Positions 1-22,343 of a stretch of DNA of 64,000 bases are shown piece after piece. A model generated the notes under the pieces. The model did no database searches. It was given only the letters and a program-made list of their open reading frames with translations, and was not told the DNA's origin. Position numbers and translations under genes: made by a program. The stretch's first letter is position 1. Each line of letters opens with the position of its first letter. The DNA is taken from contig JAIPJB010000001.1 in assembly GCA_021734395.1 (NCBI GenBank), forward strand, positions 1 to 64,000, written 5' to 3'. The DNA comes from Candidatus Altimarinota bacterium (GTDB lineage Bacteria > Patescibacteriota > Gracilibacteria > UBA4473).

Positions 1-19
1 CCGTTGCCTCAAGGACTGA
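1..19 (+). CDS. 3' tail of a DGR variable target protein (partial)
   Basis: The window opens inside a reading frame: codons from base 2 read Arg-Cys-Leu-Lys-Asp and stop at TGA (17-19). Bases 1-18 are identical to bases 778-795 at the end of the template repeat next to the reverse transcriptase, and identity stops at base 19/796. An RCLKD-type ending is typical of the Fibrobacter succinogenes major paralogous domain (FISUMP), a C-type-lectin-like fold used as a DGR variable domain. This is therefore most likely the last codons of the variable repeat of a diversified surface protein whose body lies left of the window. Only 18 bases are visible, so the identity of the whole gene is inference. 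Confidence 0.7.
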
Positions 20-599
20 TAATTCGACCCTTTGACTTCTTTGTCTCTTTTTTCTTTGCGAGCGAAGCGAGCAAAGGGGTACTCCCAGTTAATTTCTTGT
101 CATTCCGGCGCACCTCTGTCATTCCTGCGCATGCAGGAATCTCTCTGTCATTCCGGTTCATAACGCAGTGGAGATACCGGAATCTCTCTGTCATTCCTGC
201 GCATGCAGGAATCCATCTCATCTTCTATTTCGGAGATCCTGGGACAAGCCCGGGATGACATAAAGAGTAAAGGTGTCGTTCCTCCCTTTCTGTCATTCCG
301 GCCGAAGTGCCGGAATCTTTTGTCATTCCGGTTCGTAACGCAGTGGAGATACCGGAATCTCATTTATCCATTCCCCAGATACTTTTAACAATAAAAAGAT
401 AATAACCGAGAAGGAAAGCTTGATTTTAATTTTTTATAAATTATATTAAAAAAGGTCAGGTTTTTTTGTGCTACGGTTCAAAAAAGAGAGCCATATCAGT
501 CCAATAGCCCCCTTGCTTTTCGTGCAAGGTATGATGAGGAGGTTCCTCGTTTCTTGTTTTTTTCTTAAAACAGGCAACAAATACAGTGGCTATCAAAAT
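20..599. repeat. Cluster of dispersed palindromes between DGR target and template repeat
   Basis: This gene-free stretch is mostly repeats. Several units have the form GTCATTCC, a palindrome, then GGAATC: a GCGCATGC-centred type near 117-141 and 201-213, and a GTTCGTAACGCAGTGG-centred type near 149-183 and 321-360. Another form ends GACAAGCCCGGGATGAC (243-260). From about 390 to 599 the DNA is AT-rich. The end of that part may be degenerate sequence related to the FISUMP coding region just upstream of the template repeat. No plausible gene is seen; short open frames here are by-products of the repeats. Confidence 0.75.
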
Positions 600-795
600 T
601 TTCAGCGCCTTTAGCTGGCTACCGAAATGTAACAGGAGGTTTCAACAATAGTGGATCAAATGCGAACGTCTGGTCGTCTTCTCAGAATAGCTCTACAAAT
701 GCATGGAGACGCAATCTGAATTCGGGCTACTCGACAATCAACCGTAATACAAACAATAAGAACAATGGCTTCTCCCTCCGTTGCCTCAAGGACTG
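600..795 (+). repeat. DGR template repeat (TR)
   Basis: Read in the frame of base 620 (GGC TAC CGA), this non-genic segment encodes a FISUMP-like C-terminus: GYRNVTGGFNN, then VWSSSQNSS, AWRRNLNSGYS and ending GFSLRCLKD. About 14 AAC/AAT codons fall between 641 and 770, the hallmark of a template repeat whose adenines are mutated during cDNA synthesis. Its 3' end (778-795) is identical to the variable-repeat tail at 1-18. The left boundary is uncertain; homology to the protein family can be followed in frame back to about 600. There is no start codon or ribosome site, so it is a template and not a gene. The transcript would read toward the reverse transcriptase at 1105. Confidence 0.85.
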
Positions 796-1104
796 GTTTT
801 ATTTCTTTCTTCTTGTCATTCCTGCGCCCATCTGTCATTCCTGCGCATGCAGGAATCTCTTTGTCATTCCGGTTCGACACATAGTGGAGATACCGGAATC
901 TTCGTCCTCTACCTAAGATCCCGGGACAAGCCCGGGATGACATAAAGAGTAAAGGTGTCGTTCCTCCCTTTCTGTCATTCCTGCGCATTCTTGTCATTCC
1001 GGTTCGTAACGCAGTGGAGATACCGGAATCTCCCCTAAAAATTAAATTTAGATAAATTTTTAATTTGTCATTCAATCATTGATTTTTTAGAATGAAATTA
1101 AAAT
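796..1104. repeat. Palindrome cluster between TR and reverse transcriptase
   Basis: The stretch holds at least four dispersed repeat units: GTCATTCCTGCGCATGCAGG (834-853), GTCATTCCGGTTCGACAC (863-880), a CCCGGGACAAGCCCGGGATGAC unit ending near 941, and GTCATTCCGGTTCGTAACGC (994-1013). The last 70 bases are AT-rich and lead into the reverse transcriptase gene. No gene is supported here. Part of this region could be the structured spacer RNA that follows the template repeat in a DGR transcript, but no specific fold was recognised. Confidence 0.7.
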
Positions 1105-2253
1105 ATGGAAGTCCCCCCTCATTTATTACAGGATCTTTTTCAAGCGTATTTTGATGCTCGAAGAAACAAAAGAAATACCAATAATCAGCTCCAATTTGAA
1201 CTGAATTATGAAAAAAATATTTTCGCCCTTTTTTCTCAATTAAAAGATAAATCCTACTCCATTTCCAAAAGTATTTGTTTTATTGTTTTTTATCCCGTAA
1301 AACGAGAAATTTTTGCTGGAGATTTTCGTGATAGAGTTATCCATCATTTAGTCTTCAATGCGCTCAATCCTCTCTTTGAAAAACTATTTATATACGATAG
1401 TTACAGTTGTAGAAAAGAAAAAGGTCCTCTTTTTGGTATAAAAAGAGTGCAATATTTTCATCGATCATGCTCTCGTAATTACCAAAAAGAATCTTTTTTC
1501 CTTAAATTGGATATTCAGGGATATTTTATGTCCATTGATCAAAAAATCCTTTTCCAAAAAATACAACGAGCAATCCAACGGAAACAGATCCCTTATGCGG
1601 AATTTTGGTTATGGCTTTTAGAACTTATTATCTTTCATGACCCCACAAAAAACTGCGTCATGAAAGGACACAAAAAAGATTGGGACGGGTTGCCTCCTTC
1701 CAAAAGTCTGTTTGGTACTTCGTGTGGAACAGGTCTTCCTATTGGCAATCTTACTTCTCAACTTTTCGGAAATGTATACCTCAATGATTTTGATCATTTT
1801 ATAAAATCTCAAATGAAGTGTCGGTATTATGGTCGTTATGTAGATGATTTCGTCATATTGGATAATGATAAAGAATTTCTCAAATTTCTTATTCCCAAAA
1901 TAAAAACATTCCTTCACGAAAACACAAGACTTATTTTACATCCCAAAAAAATTCATTTGCAACCCTGCAAAAACGGAATTCCTTTTTTGGGAGCAATTAT
2001 AAAGCCCTATAGAACCTATGTCAGAAATCGAACAAAAGGAGCTTTTTTCAAAAAAATTCAATATTGGGAAAATCAAATGCCTCTCTCTTCCAAAGAAAAA
2101 CAATCCTGTACTTCCTGCTTGCAATCATATTTGGGACTGATGAAACACTTCAATACTTCGCGTCTTCAGGAAAAAATGATCCAAAGAAACATGTCTCCTG
2201 AGTTACGAAAAATTTTTCACAAAAATAAACCTCCCATTTATGACCACATATAA
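1105..2253 (+). CDS. DGR reverse transcriptase
   Basis: A 382-residue group-II-intron-like reverse transcriptase of the diversity-generating retroelement type. The palm Asp of motif 3 is D136 in LDIQGYF. Motif 4 reads GLPIGNLTSQLFGN with I213-G-N-L-T-S-Q219, the IGxxxSQ signature that separates DGR enzymes from other bacterial RTs (which have QGxxxSP). The catalytic YVDD is residues 245-248. Downstream IPFLGAII fits the primer-grip region. No maturase or endonuclease domain follows, as expected for the class. It would copy the template repeat at 600-795 into adenine-mutated cDNA that replaces the variable repeat of the target gene. It overlaps the Avd gene by 14 bases, suggesting co-translation. 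Start chosen at the first ATG; no clear ribosome site. Confidence 0.95.
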   Translation: MEVPPHLLQDLFQAYFDARRNKRNTNNQLQFELNYEKNIFALFSQLKDKSYSISKSICFIVFYPVKREIFAGDFRDRVIHHLVFNALNPLFEKLFIYDSYSCRKEKGPLFGIKRVQYFHRSCSRNYQKESFFLKLDIQGYFMSIDQKILFQKIQRAIQRKQIPYAEFWLWLLELIIFHDPTKNCVMKGHKKDWDGLPPSKSLFGTSCGTGLPIGNLTSQLFGNVYLNDFDHFIKSQMKCRYYGRYVDDFVILDNDKEFLKFLIPKIKTFLHENTRLILHPKKIHLQPCKNGIPFLGAIIKPYRTYVRNRTKGAFFKKIQYWENQMPLSSKEKQSCTSCLQSYLGLMKHFNTSRLQEKMIQRNMSPELRKIFHKNKPPIYDHI

Positions 2254-2617
2254 TAATTTACCGCTTTATAAAGGCAGTTATGACTTTCTCTTGGCAACTT
2301 TTCAAATTTGTAAGCATTTTAGCAAAGAATATAAATATACAATCGGCGATGATCTCAAAAAAGAAATAACTCTCCTCGTAAAAAATATTTATCATGCCAA
2401 TGGAAGTCAAAAAAATCGCGTGCAATATATTCAGCAAGCACAGGAAAATGTTGAAACAATCCGCCTTTATATTCGTCTTCTCAAAGATCTTCATCAAATC
2501 AATATCGAAAAATTCACAACACTCAACGAAAAACTGGAATCAATCTCCAAGCAGCTTTCTGCATGGAAAAAATATTCAGAAGCAAATCAACCCCAAAAAT
2601 CTAGTTCTTTTTGTTGA
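2240..2617 (+). CDS. avd: Avd-like DGR accessory protein (four-helix bundle)
   Basis: A 125-residue, largely helical basic protein. The opening LPLYKGSYDFLLATFQICKH, then GDDLKKEITLLVKNIYHAN and a C-terminal TIRLYIRLLKDL helix match the pattern of the Avd/23S-rRNA-intervening-sequence four-helix-bundle family. In studied DGRs Avd forms a pentamer that binds the reverse transcriptase and template RNA and is needed for mutagenic homing. Its start lies 14 bases inside the end of the RT gene, in a different frame. In the Bordetella phage DGR avd lies upstream of the TR; here it follows the RT. The call rests on pattern plus position beside a DGR RT. Confidence 0.85.
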   Translation: MTTYNNLPLYKGSYDFLLATFQICKHFSKEYKYTIGDDLKKEITLLVKNIYHANGSQKNRVQYIQQAQENVETIRLYIRLLKDLHQINIEKFTTLNEKLESISKQLSAWKKYSEANQPQKSSSFC

Positions 2618-2996
2618 TATTGCTTTTTCAGCTTTATCATTCCTGCGCACCTCTGTCATTCCTGCGTATGCAGGAATCTCTTTGTCATTCTGGTTCGGCA
2701 CGCAGTGAAGATATCAGAATCTTCGTCCTCTACCTAAGATCCCGGGACAAGCCCGGGATGACACAATCAGGAATCTCATTTATCTATTTCTGAGATACCG
2801 GTATGTCGCTCCGCTCCAACCGGTATGACAACTTTTTTCTGTCATTCCTGCGCATGCAGGAATCCATCTCATCTTCTATTTCGGAGATCCCGGGACAAGC
2901 CCGGGATGACATAATACTGTCATCCTGACACACTCTTGTCATTCCTGCGTATTCTTGTCATTCCGGCCGAAGTGCCGGAATCTTTATATTCCTCTT
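2618..2996. repeat. Palindrome cluster downstream of the DGR
   Basis: No gene. The stretch is a string of the same repeat types as on the other side of the DGR: GTCATTCCTGCGTATGCAGG (2656-2675), CCCGGGACAAGCCCGGGATGAC units ending near 2762 and 2911, an ACCGGTATGTCGCTCCG unit (2798-2814) ending in CCGGTATGAC (2820-2829), GTCATTCCTGCGCATGCAGG (2841-2860), and a GTCATTCCGGCCGAAGTG unit at 2957. The DGR is thus bounded on both sides by the same palindrome families. Confidence 0.75.
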
Positions 2997-3411
2997 GTCA
3001 TTCCGGCTGAAGTGCCGGAATCTCCTCCAATACTTGACTTCATCAAAAACGCTATGACAAAATAGAATTATGAAAACTTATTATGTATATATCCTCACGA
3101 ATAAAAAACAAGGAGTTCTGTACATAGGTGTCACCAATAATATAACCCGAAGAATATACGAACACAAAAAAGGAATCTTTGAAGGCTTTTCCAAAAAATA
3201 CAACTTAAAAAAACTTGTTTGGTTTGATGAAACGAACGATGTTTCTGCGGCTATTGAGACAGAAAAACGAATGAAGAAATGGAAGCGCCAGTATAAAATA
3301 AATGTTATAGAAGCATTAAATCCTTCTTGGAGAGATTTAAGTGAAGATTTCTTGGATATGGATTGGATGGAATGAGATACCGGTATGTCGTTTCACTCCA
3401 ACCGGTATGAC
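2997..3411. mobile_element. GIY-YIG cassette 1 with palindromic ends
   Basis: A 415-bp unit that begins with GTCATTCCGGCTGAAGTGCC (a palindrome closed by GGAATC) and ends with an ACCGGTATGTCG...CCGGTATGAC palindrome, so the outer ends are GTCAT and ATGAC in inverted orientation. It encloses only the GIY-YIG gene at 3070-3375. Two other GIY-YIG genes in the window (4021-4403 and 42285-42660) are boxed the same way with unrelated palindrome cores. Calling it a mobile element is inference from this shared architecture. Confidence 0.5.
3070..3375 (+). CDS. Small GIY-YIG nuclease-domain protein
   Basis: A 101-residue single-domain GIY-YIG protein of the UvrC N-terminal/YhbQ-like type. The GIY motif is seen as YYVYILTNKK near residues 4-13 and YIG as VLYIGVTNNI near 17-26, followed by RRIYEHK with the catalytic Arg and His, and a later conserved Glu in AAIETEKRMKKW. 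The NPSWRDLSEDFL ending is shared with the copies at 42322 and, less closely, 4058. Proteins of this size lack a DNA-recognition domain. Their cellular role is not established; roles in repair and in repeat or homing activity have been proposed for relatives. It sits alone between palindromic repeats with no operon partner. Confidence 0.9.
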   Translation: MKTYYVYILTNKKQGVLYIGVTNNITRRIYEHKKGIFEGFSKKYNLKKLVWFDETNDVSAAIETEKRMKKWKRQYKINVIEALNPSWRDLSEDFLDMDWME

Positions 3412-3654
3412 AATTTTTTTTCTGTCATTCCTGCACACTTTTGTCATTCCTGCGCATGCAGGAATCTCATTTATCTATTTCTAAGATACCGGTATGTCGC
3501 TCCGCTCCAACCGGTATGACAACTTTTTCTTTTATCATTCCTCCCTTTGTTGTCATTCCTGCGCACCTCTGTCATTCCGGCCGAAGTGCCGGAATCTTTT
3601 TATTTTTTCTTGTTTTTTTTATGCTCAAAGTGCTATCATGAGAACAATAAAAAA
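3412..3654. repeat. Palindrome cluster
   Basis: A further run of dispersed units: GTCATTCCTGCGCATGCAGG (3441-3460), an ACCGGTATGTCGCTCCG unit ending in GGTATGAC (3487-3521), and GTCATTCCGGCCGAAGTGCC (3570-3589). After 3600 the DNA becomes AT-rich, with TATCAT at 3633 as a weak -10 candidate for the frameshifted gene that follows. Confidence 0.65.
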
Positions 3655-4016
3655 ATGAAAAACTCATATTGTCCGTTGCCTTGGTTTCTGTTGCCAGCAT
3701 AGGTATTGTTTTGGGGTATGGAACCAATCGTATCGATGCTTTGGATGATGCAGGATTGAGTCTTTTTGATAACGATTCCAATGGTATTTTTATTCAAGAT
3801 GGTGGAAATGTGGGCATCGGGACGACTGCTCCTACTCAAGCCCTTGATGTAAACGGTCGTGTCCGCCTCCGAGCAAACGGAAAAGGCACGTGTGACGCGG
3901 ATGCCGCTGGAGCCATCGCATACGAAGAGACTGCCAATGTCGGTTACTTCTACGGCTGTAAAAAAACCGGCGAAGCGACCTATCAGTGGTTCGTGCTGGA
4001 GATATTTGGGGAGTAA
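3655..4016 (+). pseudogene. Secreted S74/tail-fibre-like small protein, frameshifted after codon 3
   Basis: From ATG 3655 the frame reads MKNSYCPL and stops within 50 bases. One base added to the A run at 3658-3662 would give MKKLILSVALVSVASIGIVLG, a good signal peptide, and continue in the open frame that runs from 3669 to TAA at 4014. The mature part contains VGIGTTAPTQALDVNGRVRL, the motif found before trimeric S74-type or tail-fibre-like domains, then two Cys (KGTCDADAAG and YFYGCKKT). The lesion is a single-base loss in a homopolymer: it may be real, phase-variable, or a sequencing error. An alternative TTG start at 3669 would give a 115-residue product that keeps most of the hydrophobic core of the signal. 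Confidence 0.7.
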
Positions 4017-4020
4017 GAAA

Positions 4021-4403
4021 GTCATCCCCGTGAAGACGGGGATCCAAAGCTTTTCAATTGATGGAACCAAAACAACCAGCGGTGTATATCCTAGCCAATA
4101 AAAAGAACGGCACTCTGTACATAGGAGTAACGAGTGATTTAGAACATCGTGTCTGGGAACACAAACAGGAAAAAATACCTGGATTCACAAAAAAATATTC
4201 CATAAACAAGCTCGTGTACTATGAGCTTTATGAGAACATAAGAAATGCGATCCAACGAGAAAAAGATCTCAAGCATTGGAATCGACTTTGGAAGTTGAGA
4301 TTGATAAATCAATATAATTCGAATTGGAAAGATTTATACGAAGACATCGCGAGATAAAAATAATGCGTGCGAAGGTTTGGGTTCCCGCCTCCGCGGGAAT
4401 GAC
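4021..4403. mobile_element. GIY-YIG cassette 2 with palindromic ends
   Basis: A 383-bp unit starting GTCATCCCCGTGAAGACGGG and ending with a palindrome that finishes CCGCGGGAATGAC. It contains a single GIY-YIG gene. The left end starts 4 bases after the stop codon of the frameshifted gene before it, suggesting insertion right at a gene end. Architecture matches cassettes 1 and 3; mobility is inferred, not shown. Confidence 0.5.
4058..4357 (+). CDS. Small GIY-YIG nuclease-domain protein
   Basis: A 99-residue single-domain GIY-YIG protein (start ATG 4058 or the adjacent in-frame ATG at 4061). Motifs: AVYILANKKNG (GIY position), TLYIGVTSDLEHRVWEHK (YIG plus catalytic Arg/His), PGFTKKYSINKLVYYE, and AIQREKDLKHWNRLWK with the metal-binding Glu. 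It resembles the copies at 3070 and 42322 but is clearly diverged, so these are not recent duplicates. The upstream palindrome ends 13 bases before the start codon, leaving no room for an independent promoter outside the repeat. Confidence 0.9.
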   Translation: MMEPKQPAVYILANKKNGTLYIGVTSDLEHRVWEHKQEKIPGFTKKYSINKLVYYELYENIRNAIQREKDLKHWNRLWKLRLINQYNSNWKDLYEDIAR

Positions 4404-4598: not shown

Positions 4599-7190
4599 CT
4601 ACTTCATCTCCAACACCAGCTTCACCGCTTCCGCCCGAGTCAGCGGCGCGTGAGGACGAAATGTCCCGTCCTCATATCCTTTAACAATTCCTCGACGAGC
4701 CGCTTCCCCAACCCACGGACGTTCCCAACCGTGAACATCTGTAAACCCTCCCCCTTTGAAAAAGGGGGAGGTGGAGGGGGATTTTTCAGGATTCGTATCC
4801 TGGGGATACGAATCCAATACGGGCTCATCTGATACAGGCTCAAAACCATCCGCCGCCAAAAGAATCTTGACCCCTTCGGCTCGAGTGAGATTCTGCAGGG
4901 GACGAAATGTCCCGTCTTCATATCCTTTGATAATTCCCTGCCCGACCAAAGCCATCACGGCGTTATAAAATTCGGAAGTCTCTGGAACATCCTGAAACCC
5001 CGATTCTTTCGGATTCGTATCCCTTGAAGGATACGAATCCAATTGTACGACCATCTTCACAAAATCCCCCCGATCAATCGCCCGATCCAGATGCAATTTC
5101 CCATTGAGCTCTGGTTCTAGTAAATCTTTTTTCACCGCCTGTATCGCGTATCCAGCCGCCCAGTGAGACGGATCAAAATCCCGAAAAAAAGCACGATCAG
5201 AAGGAATCGGCTCACTCCTCTGTCCTTCTCGGACAGACAGACACCGAAAAGCCGTGCAAAATTCTACCTGCGAGCTCACTCCAAAAGCCTCGGCCACAAA
5301 CTCCGGAAACCGAACAAAAAGTTCTTTTTGCGCTTCTGAAAAAGGGGCAATCTCAATCAGCGTGTCCGGATCCACTCGGTCAGGATAATCAAATTGTTGC
5401 CACAGAATGCTTTCAGGATTCGTATCCTGGGGATACGAATCCAAAGAAATAGGATACAACGGCACGCCTCCAGAAAATCGTGCATTCGTTTGGGGAGAGA
5501 ATAATTCCGGATCCTGCAATCGGAGTATTTCCCGCTCGATATTTCTTTTTTTTAGATCAAATTCTAAATTTTGATCGCTGAAGTGTGAAATCGAACTCAA
5601 TTTGGCCTCCAATTCGCTTCTCTGAGTGCTTTGATCAAAGAACGATGTCTGTATCCCAAAACTCCGTCCCAAGGCCAACAGGGCGTCAATAAATTCGATT
5701 TGGGATTCGGACTCCGGGAAATGAGGATTCCTATCCTCGGGATAGAAATCCAAAACAAATAATTTCAAAATTTCCGCTATTTTTCGTGCTCCCCAGACTC
5801 GAGACAAAAAAGCGGCTTCTTTTTTCTGATCTGCCCAAAACGGCACCGTTTTTCGTCCCGTAAAAAAAACAGGCCACTTTCGAACACCGGCCTGATATTC
5901 TGTCGGCAACACTTCAGAAAAATTTTTTGATCCGTCGGAAAAAGAAATTTTCTCTCGCCAGTTCTCCCATCGATCCAAAAAATCTTCTTTTTCTGGAAGA
6001 CCTGTCGCGCTCTGAAACAGTTTTTGAAAAAATCCACCGGACAGTTTCGCGAACAAATGCAGGTTTTTATTTTCAGGAGAGAAAGAAAATGCAATCACCG
6101 AAGCAGGCAAGACCTCCGGATCGATCCAAAAGTCCTGGTCGGTAAAAAGGACGACTGTTCCTTCAGAAAAATCGGAGGGAATACTGATTCCTTTTGTAAA
6201 TGTTCCGTCTCCCACAGGCTTCATGCGCTCCAGCGCCTGAGAGAAATCTCGCCGAAAAGCAAAATCATTGTCCGAAAATCCGTCCTCATACTCTTCCCAT
6301 CCTTCGCCAAGAAAGGCGAAAGAAACCTCCTTTCCGTCCCACAGCTCCAAGAGAAACGAAAGCCATTCTTGCACGCGATCCCATTTTTCTCCCAGCATCG
6401 AGCCGGTCCGATCCACGAGAAACAATATTTTTTGGGGATTTTTTTTCTCTTCCCTCGGTTGAAAAAATCCCCGATACACATGTTCTCTCAAATCGTATTC
6501 GAGAACAGGACGATCTTTGGTACTCCAGAAAAAAGAAAAATGCTGATCTGGCGAAAAGAAAGCTTTTTTAATCAAGAATGCTGTCTGATCCGAGCCTTTT
6601 TCTACCAACGCTTCGTCTTGCAAAGAAGCAAGAAATCCCGTCAGCGGCTCATCATGAGAGAGTGAGAAAGCCAGCTCCCACGCCTCACTCTTGATCCCGT
6701 CCGCGAGAAATATCTGCTGGTATTGGAAATCATCAATGACTTGAGGGGTTGATTCAAACGTCAACTTGAGTGATTTTTTCTCGCCGGGCGAAAACATGAT
6801 CGAATCCGAAATAAAAATTCGCGACCACTGTCCCAGAGAAAAAAACCGATGATCCCGATGCAATGCTGCTTTTTCAAAAAGAAATGCTCGGGCTTCTTCT
6901 TCTTTGAGTATCCCAAAAGGATGTCCCCCACTCTGCACAAAAAAAGAAATATTTTCTGCCTTTTCGGGCAGAGGAAAAACAAATCGTAATTCTTGAGGCT
7001 GATCGGTTGTATTGTGTAGTTGATCTCTTATTTCCGTGCGAGTAATTCCTTCTCCGGCATATATTTGTACTCGCCGCTCTGTACGGAAAAACAAAGATTC
7101 AAATGATTGCGTTGAAGTATCCCACGAAAAAAAAGCATATCCATTTCCCCACAAGAGAATCCCCCAGCAAGCGACGATGAGTCGTTTCAT
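4599..7190 (-). CDS. VIT/VWA surface protein with C-terminal SLH domains
   Basis: Start chosen at ATG 7190 (MKRLIVACWGILLWGNGYAFF), a clear signal peptide; the open frame extends 28 codons further upstream without one. The 863-residue product has a VIT-like N-domain (FESLFFRTERRVQIYAGEG, then RFVFPLPEKA), a von Willebrand A domain with a degenerate MIDAS (FLVDRTGSM, first Asp about residue 260), a long linker, and two to three S-layer-homology repeats in the last 200 residues (twice IKGYEDGTFRP/VKGYEDGTFRP, then LTRAE). SLH domains usually anchor proteins to the cell-wall or S-layer polymer. It ends the minus-strand envelope cluster, 37 bases after the PKD gene. Four in-frame palindromes encode LDSYPQDTNP-like peptides, and a further repeat adds a PSTSPFFKGGG peptide. 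Confidence 0.9.
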   Translation of the reverse strand: MKRLIVACWGILLWGNGYAFFSWDTSTQSFESLFFRTERRVQIYAGEGITRTEIRDQLHNTTDQPQELRFVFPLPEKAENISFFVQSGGHPFGILKEEEARAFLFEKAALHRDHRFFSLGQWSRIFISDSIMFSPGEKKSLKLTFESTPQVIDDFQYQQIFLADGIKSEAWELAFSLSHDEPLTGFLASLQDEALVEKGSDQTAFLIKKAFFSPDQHFSFFWSTKDRPVLEYDLREHVYRGFFQPREEKKNPQKILFLVDRTGSMLGEKWDRVQEWLSFLLELWDGKEVSFAFLGEGWEEYEDGFSDNDFAFRRDFSQALERMKPVGDGTFTKGISIPSDFSEGTVVLFTDQDFWIDPEVLPASVIAFSFSPENKNLHLFAKLSGGFFQKLFQSATGLPEKEDFLDRWENWREKISFSDGSKNFSEVLPTEYQAGVRKWPVFFTGRKTVPFWADQKKEAAFLSRVWGARKIAEILKLFVLDFYPEDRNPHFPESESQIEFIDALLALGRSFGIQTSFFDQSTQRSELEAKLSSISHFSDQNLEFDLKKRNIEREILRLQDPELFSPQTNARFSGGVPLYPISLDSYPQDTNPESILWQQFDYPDRVDPDTLIEIAPFSEAQKELFVRFPEFVAEAFGVSSQVEFCTAFRCLSVREGQRSEPIPSDRAFFRDFDPSHWAAGYAIQAVKKDLLEPELNGKLHLDRAIDRGDFVKMVVQLDSYPSRDTNPKESGFQDVPETSEFYNAVMALVGQGIIKGYEDGTFRPLQNLTRAEGVKILLAADGFEPVSDEPVLDSYPQDTNPEKSPSTSPFFKGGGFTDVHGWERPWVGEAARRGIVKGYEDGTFRPHAPLTRAEAVKLVLEMK
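4789..4815. repeat. In-frame palindromic element in SLH gene (copy 1)
   Basis: GGATTCGTATCC and its reverse complement GGATACGAATCC separated by 3 bases; on the coding strand this gives LDSYPQDTNP in the open frame. It lies between two SLH repeats. A second repeat type, AT the 4747-4783 stretch of CCCCTTTGAAAAAGGGGG, follows it directly and encodes SPFFKGGG. Confidence 0.85.
5011..5040. repeat. In-frame palindromic element in SLH gene (copy 2)
   Basis: GGATTCGTATCC and GGATACGAATCC with a 6-base centre, encoding LDSYPSRDTNP on the minus strand. It lies in the first SLH repeat, between KMVVQ and KESGFQDV. Confidence 0.85.
5416..5442. repeat. In-frame palindromic element in SLH gene (copy 3)
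   Basis: Sequence identical to copy 1 (3-base centre), encoding SLDSYPQDTNPES in the linker between the VWA and SLH parts. Perfect identity between copies 600 bases apart suggests recent spread or gene conversion. Confidence 0.85.
5725..5751. repeat. In-frame palindromic element in SLH gene (copy 4, diverged)
   Basis: GGATTCCTATCC and GGGATAGAAATCC, a diverged member encoding VLDFYPEDRNPHF. Compensatory changes keep both the palindrome and the open frame. Confidence 0.7.
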
Positions 7191-7227
7191 TTTTTTTATA
7201 GTATTTGGGAACTCCACAAAAAACAAA

Positions 7228-9498
7228 TTACTCCTCTTCCTCAAGGAGAACCGTCTCTCTCGTAGTCGAAACAACGCCCTTATTGTCGGTAATCTTTAAC
7301 TGCACGGTATATTCTCCCGGAAAACGATAAGTATGTGTCGGTTTAAATTCTCGTGAGGTTTCTCCGTCACCGAAATCCCATACATATTGCGTGAAGGTTC
7401 CACTTGAGCTCGTCGGATCAAAGGAAACCGTCAGTGGATCATCTTCTTCATAGAGAACCTCAAAGCGAGCCTGCAAAGGCTGTGCTCGCACGGAAATCAT
7501 AAACGTCGATTCATCCATTTCTCCTTCTGAAGTCAAAACTCGAAGTCGAACCGGAAAATTTCCGACCGATGTAAATTCATACGATATTTGCGCTCCATAG
7601 CTGATGGGATCTTTTCCCGGAAACTGCCAGAAATAATTCACGATTTCTCCTTTGTCGGTCGTGGAAGCCGATCCGTCAAATTCAACCGTCATTGGCACGA
7701 CCCCTGATGCTGGTTGCGCAGTAATTTTTGCTTGGGTTCCAGCTCTCCCCACGATGACCTGATGCTGGGTGGAGTATTGTTTGTCCGCTGCATCCAAGAC
7801 GACGAGTTTTACTGGATATACCCCAGGTTTTCGAAAAATATATCGAGCGACCCGGTCGTAGCTATCCACGATCCCGTCATTTTCAAAATCCCAGCGCCAT
7901 TCGACCGCATTTTTTATCTGAGAATTGGAAGGGTCAAAAGCTACTTCAAAAGGAACTGTCCCACGAGTAATTCCCTCTTGATCCGCTGATGGCGTGGTAC
8001 GAATAGACAATTCTACCTTCGTTTGCCCGTCAGTAACAACAATTGTCTCGGTTGTTTTGGCTTTTTCCCCGAGATCATTTTCGACGGTCAAAGAAACTTT
8101 GTATTCTCCGGGAGAACGAAATGTTCTCTGAATTTTCCGACCGACAACGGCCTTTTCTTCCCCCTCAATAAACCATTCATAGCGGACAATCTCTCCAAAT
8201 CGGGTAAAGGATTGAGAACCATCGAGCGTGACCCTGAAAGGTGCAGCGCCACTCAAACCTTCATCACCGATAATTTCCGCACGCAGATTTTCTTCGGACT
8301 CAGAAACGACAATAACCTGTTCCGAGACAGATGTGTCGTTATTTGCTCCGGTAACACGTAAACGCACCATGAACTCACCGACTTTAGAAAATGTTTTTTC
8401 TAGGGTCGATTCCTCTATCCCCCGTATTTCGTATTCTCCATCACTATCCAAATCCCATTCATACAAAACGATAGAACCGTCCGGATCACGAGATTTCTGA
8501 GCTGAAAATCGAACCGTTAGAGGCACTGGTCCTGTCTCCGGATCGGCCTGAATAAGGGAAACAACCGCTTCGTTGGCAATAATAACTTCTCGGTTTGTAG
8601 TAAATTCACGTTCTTCCTGTGCCGAAGGGGAAAAATATTTCACCGTGGCTGTAACGGGAAAACGTCCATTTGCCTTGCCTTTATCCAAAAATCGATGGGT
8701 CACGGTTGGTCCAGAAGCATCGATTTGCCCATCTCCGTCAAAATCCCAATTGATCTGACGAATGAGACTCGGGTCAATATTTTCGAAGAGTTGTTGCTCC
8801 AGATCAAATTCCACCGTAACCGGAGAAGTCAGACCGATAACATTTTGCGGGTCGGTCTGGATCAGCGACTGAGAAAACTGACGTTCTTCCAATGTCGCAT
8901 GAGTAATCAGCCAAAAAAGACTGATCCATATCGCACAGAAAAAGAGAAATACTCCCAGAAAAACACCTGATTTTACGATATAATCGCGTCGATTTTCTGC
9001 ATCTTTTCCGATAATCAACCACTGAAAAAATTTGATCAGCGTTCCAATGAGAAAGAGGAGCGATAAAAATCCAAAGAGCGAATTTGTCATCAAGAGCAAC
9101 GTTTGTTGCAGCTCTACCGGCTGAATTCCAAGTGTCTCGAAGAGTGGGTTCGAAACATTCCCAGAAAGAAGTCCCCACAAAAGCACAAAGTAAAAAATAC
9201 TCAGCAGTCCTGCCGCCAGAATAAAAAACCACTTCAAAAGAAAGTGTGAGCCTGTTCTGGTTTCTTCCTCCTCTGAAGTTATGTCTCCTGAATCAGAAGA
9301 GTCACTTTTTTGAGAACGAGGAGGATTCTTTGAAGAATCTTCTTTTTTCTTTTTGTCTGGATCATCTTCATTTCCTTCCGGCACGATAGGCGGAGGAACG
9401 ACAGGAGGAATCCCGCCTGCTCCACCGGATCCTGTCGGAGGTGGGGTTTGAGAAGGATTTGGCGTTTGTTCTGGATTTTGGTTTTTGTTTTCGTCCAT
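7228..9498 (-). CDS. Membrane-anchored protein with multiple PKD domains
   Basis: A 756-residue protein: a Pro/Asn-rich cytoplasmic-type N-terminus (residues 1-85), three hydrophobic segments at about 88-112 (FLLKWFFILAAGLLSIFYF), 138-165 and 174-200, then an extracellular chain of about six PKD (polycystic-kidney-disease-type Ig-like) domains. Repeated signs are DFDGDGQIDASG, EWDLDSDGEYE, WDFENDGIVDS and the final FTQYVWDFGDGETSRE. PKD domains usually mediate surface adhesion or carbohydrate and protein contacts. It has no signal peptide of its own and uses the membrane segments as anchor. It sits between the pilin-like/PKD gene and the SLH protein on the same strand, so a shared surface structure is plausible. 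Confidence 0.85.
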   Translation of the reverse strand: MDENKNQNPEQTPNPSQTPPPTGSGGAGGIPPVVPPPIVPEGNEDDPDKKKKEDSSKNPPRSQKSDSSDSGDITSEEEETRTGSHFLLKWFFILAAGLLSIFYFVLLWGLLSGNVSNPLFETLGIQPVELQQTLLLMTNSLFGFLSLLFLIGTLIKFFQWLIIGKDAENRRDYIVKSGVFLGVFLFFCAIWISLFWLITHATLEERQFSQSLIQTDPQNVIGLTSPVTVEFDLEQQLFENIDPSLIRQINWDFDGDGQIDASGPTVTHRFLDKGKANGRFPVTATVKYFSPSAQEEREFTTNREVIIANEAVVSLIQADPETGPVPLTVRFSAQKSRDPDGSIVLYEWDLDSDGEYEIRGIEESTLEKTFSKVGEFMVRLRVTGANNDTSVSEQVIVVSESEENLRAEIIGDEGLSGAAPFRVTLDGSQSFTRFGEIVRYEWFIEGEEKAVVGRKIQRTFRSPGEYKVSLTVENDLGEKAKTTETIVVTDGQTKVELSIRTTPSADQEGITRGTVPFEVAFDPSNSQIKNAVEWRWDFENDGIVDSYDRVARYIFRKPGVYPVKLVVLDAADKQYSTQHQVIVGRAGTQAKITAQPASGVVPMTVEFDGSASTTDKGEIVNYFWQFPGKDPISYGAQISYEFTSVGNFPVRLRVLTSEGEMDESTFMISVRAQPLQARFEVLYEEDDPLTVSFDPTSSSGTFTQYVWDFGDGETSREFKPTHTYRFPGEYTVQLKITDNKGVVSTTRETVLLEEEE

Positions 9499-21361: not shown

Positions 21362-22343
21362 GCAGCTCCCCTGCCAGTGTTGGACCACATTCGGTGAGAA
21401 TCGAATCAATACCTTTTTCTGCGCATTGAGAAAAAATTTCTCGCAAATCACGACTATCGAACCAATGGATTTTTCGATGGGGAATAGAAAATATTTTTGC
21501 GGAAGGAGGAATGTCTTCTTTTTTTCCGAGAACAATGATCTGCGGATCTGATGTTTTCCTCCCCCTTTGTCTGCCCTGAGCGAAGCCGAAGGGAAAAAGG
21601 GGGAAAGATTCGCGCTTGTGCGAATCAGGGGGATTTAAATCTCCCTCTAACTCCCTCTTTGCCAAAGAGGGAGGATTAATTCGGCAATTGAGCAACGGAT
21701 CGTCAGCAAGAATAGTTTTCGTCGTGGTCAAGACAGCCGAGTACTGAGCCCGCATCTCGTGCACTTTTTGGCGAGAAAATTCATTACTGATATATTTGGA
21801 TTCGTATCCCTGAGGATACGAATCCTGATCTCGAACAACTTTTCCGTCCAGACTCTGTGCCATCTTGAATGTCACATACGGCAATTTTTGGGTGATATAT
21901 TTTTCAAAAAAAGAATTGAGCTCTTCGCATTTTTTATTTTTCTGAAACTCCACATTGATGCCAGCTTTTTGTAATCGTTCTAAATTTTTTCCTTGGAATT
22001 GCGGATCCAGTGCTCCGACGACAATTTTTTTGGGTTTCTGGCGAAGCAACAAGTCCGTACAGCTGGGCGTTTTTTTACCCTCAAAATGATCGCAGGGTTC
22101 AAGTGTGATATATACCTCTAAATTAGATTCGAATCCCAAATTTCTCGGATTCGAATCCTGAAGCATTCGAAAAGTATTTGCTTCCGCATGCGCTCCGCCG
22201 AACTTCTCGTGAACTCCTTCGGCAATAATCTTGCCGTTTCGCACAATGACGCACCCCACTCGTGGATTGGGGCTGGTGAGATGAGGATCAATTGTTGCGG
22301 CCAATTCTGCCGCGGAATCAAGAAAGTCCGCATTATTACTCAT
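21198..22343 (-). CDS. ribD: Riboflavin biosynthesis deaminase/reductase
   Basis: A 381-residue bifunctional RibD. The N-terminal deaminase has zinc ligands in GGAHAEAN (H, E) and in PCDHFEGKKTPSC (two Cys). The C-terminal reductase begins PYVTFKMAQSLDGKV and contains SILTECGPTLAGELL. It catalyses the second and third steps from GTP toward riboflavin. Three insertions interrupt otherwise normal spacing, all in frame: residues about 62-74 (QDSNPRNLGFESN), about 173-182 (QDSYPQGYES), and a run of about 40 residues (from INPPSLAKRELEGDLN through FGFAQGRQRGRK) encoded by 21554-21676. All match intergenic repeat families. The start overlaps the end of ribE by 8 bases. Confidence 0.9.
   Translation of the reverse strand: MSNNADFLDSAAELAATIDPHLTSPNPRVGCVIVRNGKIIAEGVHEKFGGAHAEANTFRMLQDSNPRNLGFESNLEVYITLEPCDHFEGKKTPSCTDLLLRQKPKKIVVGALDPQFQGKNLERLQKAGINVEFQKNKKCEELNSFFEKYITQKLPYVTFKMAQSLDGKVVRDQDSYPQGYESKYISNEFSRQKVHEMRAQYSAVLTTTKTILADDPLLNCRINPPSLAKRELEGDLNPPDSHKRESFPLFPFGFAQGRQRGRKTSDPQIIVLGKKEDIPPSAKIFSIPHRKIHWFDSRDLREIFSQCAEKGIDSILTECGPTLAGELLTQQLVDQMDLFVAPEIFGRGMASFSRSIDLSDFSLNRQEHLEGDVWLRFLRKK
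21554..21676. repeat. Compound repeat inserted in frame in ribD
   Basis: Two repeat blocks back to back: CCTCCCCCTTTGTCTGCC through AAAAAGGGGG (with the CTGAGCGAAGCCGAAGGG unit at 21576-21593), and CTCCCTCTTTGCCAAAGAGG near 21650-21671, joined by a GATTCGCGCTTGTGCGAATC palindrome (21607-21626). The same CCCCCTTT...CTTCGGCTTCGCTCAGGG block occurs between genes at about 51143-51203, 53092-53152 and 62105-62150. Confidence 0.85.
21798..21825. repeat. In-frame palindromic element in ribD (reductase part)
   Basis: GGATTCGTATCC and GGATACGAATCC with a 4-base centre, encoding QDSYPQGYES on the minus strand. Relative to the SLH-gene copies it has a different centre length, so its second arm is read in another frame. 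Confidence 0.85.
22125..22158. repeat. In-frame palindromic element in ribD (deaminase part)
   Basis: AGATTCGAATCC and GGATTCGAATCC around a 10-base centre, encoding DSNPRNLGFES between the zinc-ligand His-Glu motif and the Cys motif. Confidence 0.75.

What the first reader, a model, noticed from the sequence alone, without database searches (positions are those of the whole stretch)
1..2617. Complete diversity-generating retroelement core in a Patescibacteria-like genome
The RT at 1105 carries IGNLTSQ and YVDD, the Avd-like gene overlaps it, and a non-genic segment at 600-795 encodes an Asn-codon-rich FISUMP C-terminus. This is the full set needed for targeted adenine mutagenesis. The gene order (target, TR, RT, avd) differs from the Bordetella phage order. 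DGRs are known from CPR genomes, so the class is established, but the target and order here would need comparison. The system would rapidly vary a surface-exposed lectin-like protein.
Basis: partly seen in the sequence, partly recalled or inferred. Interest (0 to 1): 0.8.

Follow-up and report, generated by a model that had tools for sequence, protein, structure and literature searches.

The report
Diversity-generating retroelement cut at contig end
A tiny uncultured bacterium of the Gracilibacteria group carries an ordinary protein-randomising gene cassette whose target gene is almost wholly missing from the assembly; its template is preceded by a folded RNA that, in related cassettes, ends where the randomised stretch begins.

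Summary
The window is the first 64 kb of a 296-kb contig. Its left end carries a real diversity-generating retroelement (DGR): a DGR-type reverse transcriptase (1105-2253), an overlapping Avd (2240-2617), and a non-genic, Asn-codon-rich template repeat (TR, about 600-796) encoding a FISUMP (C-type-lectin-like) C-terminus. The target is not in the assembly; only its last codons survive (bases 1-18 equal the TR 3' end, then TGA TAA). Adenine-specific mismatches cannot be tested here, but 13 of 20 related loci in the same class show them (82-100% of mismatches at TR adenines).

(2) A folded RNA at 455-600, a divergent relative of Rfam RT-7, directly precedes the TR. In 24 of 27 relatives its closing stem ends within -3 to +7 nt of the first TR-VR-homologous base, so it marks, and perhaps sets, the TR 5' boundary. 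(3) Same-orientation palindromic repeats fill the cassette's spacers.

Verdict: new member of a known kind. The RT-7/TR boundary relation is the part worth a specialist's attention; its novelty could not be fully checked.

The parts
1..22 (+). last codons (RCLKD) of the target gene's variable repeat, then TGA TAA; base 1 is the contig end
   Evidence: exact copy of 779-796 for 18 nt, E 0.017 in own genome; same junction in L050
28..78 (+). imperfect inverted repeat after the VR, possible equivalent of the BPP-1 hairpin; not above shuffles
94..361 (+). palindromic repeat cluster between VR and the RNA element (six GTCATTCC cores)
455..600 (+). RT-7-like structured RNA directly 5' of the TR; closing stem 504-509/588-593, hairpins 511-516/524-529, 536-540/544-548, 549-560/567-578
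   Evidence: Rfam RF03028 E 7.1e-8; own model R1 at 492-619 E 2.8e-13; fold z -3.4 for 470-600
600..796 (+). template repeat (TR), encodes a FISUMP C-terminus, 15 AAY codons; 3' end 779-796 = IMH* region
   Evidence: 5' boundary by analogy
815..1030 (+). palindromic repeat cluster in the TR-RT spacer (five cores)
1105..2253 (+). DGR reverse transcriptase, 382 aa
2240..2617 (+). Avd accessory protein, 125 aa, overlaps the RT gene by 14 nt
2634..3601 (+). palindromic repeat cluster after avd (nine cores), with a GIY-YIG ORF inside

Best explanation
This is a chromosomal DGR of a Gracilibacteria-class bacterium, probably functional. A transcript holding the RT-7-like RNA (455-600) and the TR (600-796) is the template. 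RT and Avd, made from overlapping genes, copy it from the 3' (IMH*) end and insert random bases opposite adenines. The junction-shaped RNA just 5' of the TR is where copying stops, or where the complex docks, so the cDNA ends at the TR boundary. The cDNA replaces the VR at the 3' end of a FISUMP-domain gene just beyond the contig end, varying up to 30 codons of a C-type-lectin-like, probably secreted, surface. Shown: the genes, the TR, the VR's last codons, the RNA element, and its position relative to TR-VR homology in relatives. Inferred: transcription, mutagenesis, the junction's role, the target's identity, and present activity.
For: RT and Avd profiles and PDB match. TR with Asn codons in a FISUMP frame. 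18-nt VR end with the stop at the junction, as in L050. Thirteen of 20 class-relative RT loci hold TR/VR pairs with 82-100% of mismatches at TR adenines in BLAST alignments (which listed only pairs at 75% or more; ten realigned). RNA element: six of seven closing-stem pairs change on both sides, 98.9% paired, in an alignment without the window; the model from it finds the window (E 2.8e-13) and 28 held-out hits at E<0.015, all on the RT strand, 24 of them 210-440 nt upstream of the RT. The closing stem ends -3 to +7 nt from the TR-VR homology start in 24 of 27 loci. Rfam RT-7 independently matches the same places. Among 192 class relatives the three strong hits lie beside DGR RTs.
Against: The VR is absent, so no adenine-specific variation is shown for this locus. 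Repeats fill both spacers; in Thiohalocapsa PB-PSB1 MITE-like arrays replaced DGR parts (PMC10907252), so decay is possible. In BPP-1 a structured 3' spacer recruits the RT-Avd complex (PMC12875486); here only about 20 nt separate the TR from the first repeat. The inverted repeat after the VR is weak. Some seed sequences of the RNA alignment were chosen partly by complementary arms.
Confidence: 0.85

Rival explanations
1. A decaying DGR: the cassette was once active, but repeat amplification split its spacers and the target may be lost or truncated; RT and avd survive for now.
For: Twenty repeat cores in 1-4000, six before the RNA element, five between TR and RT; TR-RT spacer 308 nt against a median near 95 in relatives; target not assembled; MITE-like arrays replaced DGR parts elsewhere (PMC10907252).
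Against: RT, avd, TR, RNA element and the VR end all look intact; no repeat lies inside them; TR adenines are kept at codon positions 1-2.
Confidence: 0.12
2. The RNA at 455-600 is not part of the template RNA but a regulatory leader or a separate small RNA of the DGR operon.
For: Rfam files RT-7 only as an sRNA; no transcript data; terminator-like hairpin patterns occur in the region.
Against: The closing stem meets the TR start within a few nt in 24 of 27 loci whatever the order of avd; arrays of TR-like units in Alistipes carry the element before many units.
Confidence: 0.2
3. Another type of reverse transcriptase system (group II intron, retron or defence RT), with the FISUMP-like segment a dead gene fragment.
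For: NCBIfam lists weak group II and defence-RT matches, all below their cut-offs.
Against: DGR RT and Avd profiles, TR/VR in relatives with the closest RTs, BPP-1 RT as best PDB match.
Confidence: 0.01

Closest known systems
BPP-1 DGR of Bordetella phage (mtd-avd-TR-brt)
   Same: RT family (best PDB match, E 8e-49), Avd family, TR/VR logic
   Different: avd follows the RT here but lies between VR and TR in BPP-1, where the TR abuts avd; an RT-7-like RNA precedes the TR here, while BPP-1 and five other phage DGR loci gave no hit to my model; bacterial chromosome, FISUMP target
Patescibacteria DGRs (L050 in G171; L092 Ca. Staskawiczbacteria; L093; L095 Ca. Moraniibacteriota)
   Same: RT 52-56% identical and in one supported group with the window (SH-aLRT 95); the RNA element; FISUMP targets; the same GACTG|G versus GACTG|A junction in L050
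   Different: avd lies upstream of the TR in all of them and spacers are shorter
Gracilibacteria family f10 DGRs with avd after the RT (L053, L055, L056, L067)
   Same: RT-avd order; VR-TR-RT-avd in L055 and L056
   Different: RTs fall in another group of the quick tree; these use code 25; L055 and L056 targets do not end like FISUMP
Rfam RF03028, RT-7 RNA
   Same: same topology; window 455-600 matches E 7e-8; nine relatives E 7e-14 to 4e-4
   Different: window scores 37.9 bits against a gathering score of 116.8, so standard annotation misses it
Thiohalocapsa PB-PSB1 DGR loci with MITE-like arrays (PMC10907252)
   Same: palindromic repeat arrays inside DGR loci
   Different: there arrays replaced DGR parts; here they lie only in the gaps, and no source element was traced

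Membership tests
Diversity-generating retroelement | DGR-type reverse transcriptase ([ILV]GxxxSQ and YxDD) | tested here: met
   IGNLTSQ, YVDD; PHROG 1423 E 9e-101; BPP-1 RT best PDB match
Diversity-generating retroelement | Avd accessory protein next to the RT | tested here: met
   bAvd PF22296 E 4e-16, over its cut-off; PHROG 3206
Diversity-generating retroelement | Non-coding template repeat near the RT, adenines at variable codons | tested here: met
   600-796: FISUMP frame without a start codon; 15 AAY of 66 codons
Diversity-generating retroelement | Variable repeat at the 3' end of a target gene | tested here: inconclusive
   only the last 18 nt and the stop codons lie on the contig
Diversity-generating retroelement | TR-VR differences only at TR adenines | tested here: inconclusive
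   the 18 assembled VR nt equal the TR; met in 13 related loci
Diversity-generating retroelement | TR and VR share their 3' end and diverge right after it (IMH*/IMH) | tested here: met
   identity up to 796/18, then GTTTT versus ATAAT; same junction in L050
Diversity-generating retroelement | hairpin/cruciform shortly after the VR (PMC3240598) | tested here: inconclusive
   imperfect inverted repeat at 28-78, energy not better than shuffles
Rfam RT-7 (RF03028) | score at or above the curated gathering score, 116.8 bits | tested here: not met
   37.9 bits, E 7.1e-8; called a divergent relative, not a member
Rfam RT-7 (RF03028) | same fold over the full model, beside an RT gene | tested here: met
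   aligned to model 1-191; pairs
C-type lectin fold of the target domain | structure matches C-type lectin folds | tested here: inconclusive
   model of the L102 FISUMP domain (pLDDT 65): top VIA-align rows are C-type-lectin-like, Z up to 7.2; Foldseek E>0.1; the window's own target is not available

The most novel reading that the evidence does not exclude
RT-7-type RNA is the 5' domain of the DGR template RNA in a broad set of bacterial DGRs (Patescibacteria, Bacteroidota and others): a junction whose closing stem fixes the 5' end of the mutagenised cDNA, and so the TR boundary, the job that a motif in avd mRNA does in BPP-1.
Probability: 0.45. Interest if true: 0.65.

Novelty: new member of a known kind. 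Interest (0 to 1): 0.42.

Why it matters
DGRs in Patescibacteria are well established, so the cassette adds one member. Two points are useful. An RNA that Rfam lists as RT-7 ends, in relatives with known VRs, almost exactly where TR-VR homology starts; if it sets that boundary, it explains how these DGRs delimit the mutagenised stretch, and it locates a TR even when the VR is missing, as here. And the cassette shows avd moved and repeats in both spacers while RT, avd, TR and the RNA element look intact, which hints that those spacers matter little in this group.

Tried and rejected
Target search: TR DNA at E<=10, PF09603 and the G010 FISUMP protein against the own genome, all contig ends, and two scans of IMG/VR found no target. 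I first took the RNA element to be absent from Rfam, because a gathering scan and a 4.5-kb E-value scan missed it; narrower scans showed RT-7, so 'new RNA family' was dropped. A loose scan for a closing stem plus hairpin next to the TR start hardly beat shuffles (54 of 57 against 43 expected) and is not used. A MAFFT alignment of Bacteroidota elements misplaced three 3' arms and was not counted. Code 25 (TGA = Gly), used by several class relatives, was considered: the window's RT has no TGA and avd ends at TGA, so the standard code is kept. A borderline R1 hit in G102 (E 0.008) has no RT, Avd or TR match beside it and is treated as chance. Foldseek gave no significant PDB match. DGR surveys by Wu et al. 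2018 and Paul et al. 2017, and the paper that I believe named RT-7 (Weinberg et al. 2017, from memory), are not held, so earlier notice of the RT-7/TR link cannot be excluded.

Full report
Where it is. The window is C6:1-64000 of a 1.02-Mb, six-contig, 81%-complete genome. Relatives in the same class include genomes named Candidatus Gracilibacteria (contigs of G144 and G189 match JAQTON010000003.1 and MNYO01000105.1 in length and RT position).

The proteins. The ORF at 1105-2253 is a DGR reverse transcriptase and the ORF at 2240-2617 is Avd. They overlap by 14 nt, which suggests coupled translation (inference).

The template. The frame through 578-796 has no start codon and encodes the end of a FISUMP domain. 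Of 66 codons, 15 are AAY and 30 can vary by adenine mutagenesis; about 10^27 protein sequences are reachable, and only three codons (AGA, AAG, AAG) could become stops. Bases 1-18 repeat 779-796 exactly and in frame, then read TGA TAA where the TR reads TGG. L050 in G171 has the same junction. The window therefore starts in the last codons of the target. No FISUMP domain other than the TR was found in the assembly.

Breaks at the VR. The contig of G171 also starts inside its VR. In G010, of the same family as this genome, a FISUMP gene of at least 353 aa with a signal-peptide-like start is cut by a contig end right after '...GFSAVLAGYR', where the TR-encoded segment begins. Such breaks are expected if VRs vary in the population or resemble a TR, but no reads were available, so this is only suggestive. 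G010's protein is the best available proxy for the missing target.

Mutagenesis in relatives. Of 20 RT regions fetched from class relatives (L050-L069), 13 gave TR/VR pairs with 82-100% of mismatches at TR adenines; the listing kept only pairs at 75% or more, and ten were realigned and read by eye. The class of system is not in doubt; the window's own VR is untested.

Gene order. Over 98 related RT loci, avd lies upstream of the RT on the same strand in 73, downstream in 5 (L053, L055, L056, L067, L161), on the other strand in 6, and was not found within 2 kb in 14. In a quick RT tree (the careful search did not finish) the window falls with avd-upstream Patescibacteria loci (11 rows, SH-aLRT 95), apart from the four family-f10 loci with avd downstream, so avd probably moved independently here.

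The RNA element. Just 5' of the TR the window folds into a closing stem (504-509/588-593) around three hairpins. Thirteen sequences from relatives, window left out, gave a closing stem with two-sided changes at six of seven pairs and 98.9% paired; some were picked partly by complementarity, which inflates this count. A covariance model from them hit the window at E 2.8e-13 and nothing else in 64 kb. In 87 other loci (859 kb) it gave 28 hits at E<0.015, all on the RT strand, 24 of them ending 214-434 nt upstream of the RT; two of the 28 are the same genome. Over 192 class relatives it found G000, G171 and G025, all beside DGR RTs, and one borderline hit. On 41 sequences aligned to the model, 143 cells show two-sided changes against 46 in shuffles (that alignment leans towards the structure).

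What it is. Rfam RT-7 (RF03028) matches the same places: the window at 455-600 with E 7e-8, and nine relatives with E 7e-14 to 4e-4, all far below the curated score of 116.8 bits; L050, L098, L129 and L185 did not reach E 0.05. It is a divergent relative of a known RNA, not a new one. BPP-1 and five other phage DGR loci gave no hit to my model; in BPP-1 the TR abuts avd.

The boundary. In 27 loci with a detected VR, TR-VR homology was extended towards 5' and its start compared with the end of the closing stem: the gap is -3 to +7 nt in 24, and 16, 28 and 83 in the others, the last being L050, whose VR is cut by its contig end. The VR is not used to find the RNA, so the agreement is independent of it. 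The simplest reading is that the junction stops or positions the reverse transcriptase at the TR's 5' end. In BPP-1 a motif in avd mRNA terminates reverse transcription and a structured 3' spacer recruits the RT-Avd complex (PMC12875486). The function is inferred.

The repeats. The core GTCATTCC occurs 20 times on the + strand in bases 1-4000 (0.06 expected from composition) and 5 times in the other 60 kb: six before the RNA element, five between TR and RT, none in RT or avd, nine after avd. The form GTCATTCCTGCGCATGCAGGAATC occurs in the genome only here (five exact copies, one with one mismatch); copies elsewhere are another variant. Local amplification, or arrival together with the DGR, are both possible. 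MITE-like arrays inside DGR loci are on record (PMC10907252).

The target domain. A model of the FISUMP domain of L102 (mean pLDDT 65) aligns best with C-type-lectin-like domains (8q4e and 8oks, Z 7.2; many others Z 5-6.5). Foldseek alone was not significant. This agrees with Roux et al. 2021, who report C-type lectin folds for annotated VR regions (PMC8144416).

Verdict. As a DGR it is ordinary. The RT-7/TR boundary relation is the most useful point, with the caution that key DGR and RT-7 papers could not be read.

Noticed in passing
L148 2454-5935; also L171, L122, L158, and L133 5259 and 5634: DGR loci of Alistipes, Rikenella and Prevotella hold arrays of TR-like units, several preceded by the same RT-7-type element (seven model hits in L148), that differ at many non-adenine sites: they look like banks of diverged templates beside one RT.
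   Followed up: partly
L051, L054, L129 (Gracilibacteria), L170 (Saccharibacteria): FISUMP targets of these DGRs start with a type IV pilin N-terminal motif (PF07963), i.e. DGR-diversified pilin-like proteins.
   Followed up: partly
window 4789-5442 and 21798-21825: A palindromic element GGATTCGTATCC-N-GGATACGAATCC occurs four times, three of them inside the 891-aa ORF at 4599-7274 on the - strand, giving repeated 'DSYPQDTNPE'-like peptides without breaking the frame.
   Followed up: partly
window 3655-4016: An ORF whose product starts like a signal peptide has no in-frame ATG; the ATG at 3655 is out of frame by one base next to a run of A, so a young frameshift or an assembly error.
   Followed up: no
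window 3070-3375 and 4058-4357: Two small GIY-YIG endonuclease ORFs lie among or beside the palindromic repeats downstream of avd.
   Followed up: no
L182 and L184 (G010:C146): In another genus of the family a FISUMP gene cut by the contig end at its VR start lies near homologs of the window's ORFs 4599-7274 and 7228-9498, in a different relative orientation.
   Followed up: partly
L070/L072 starts and L074/L077 ends (own genome, contigs C1/C2 and C3/C5): These contig ends share nearly identical sequence in pairs, so the assembly breaks at repeats elsewhere too.
   Followed up: no
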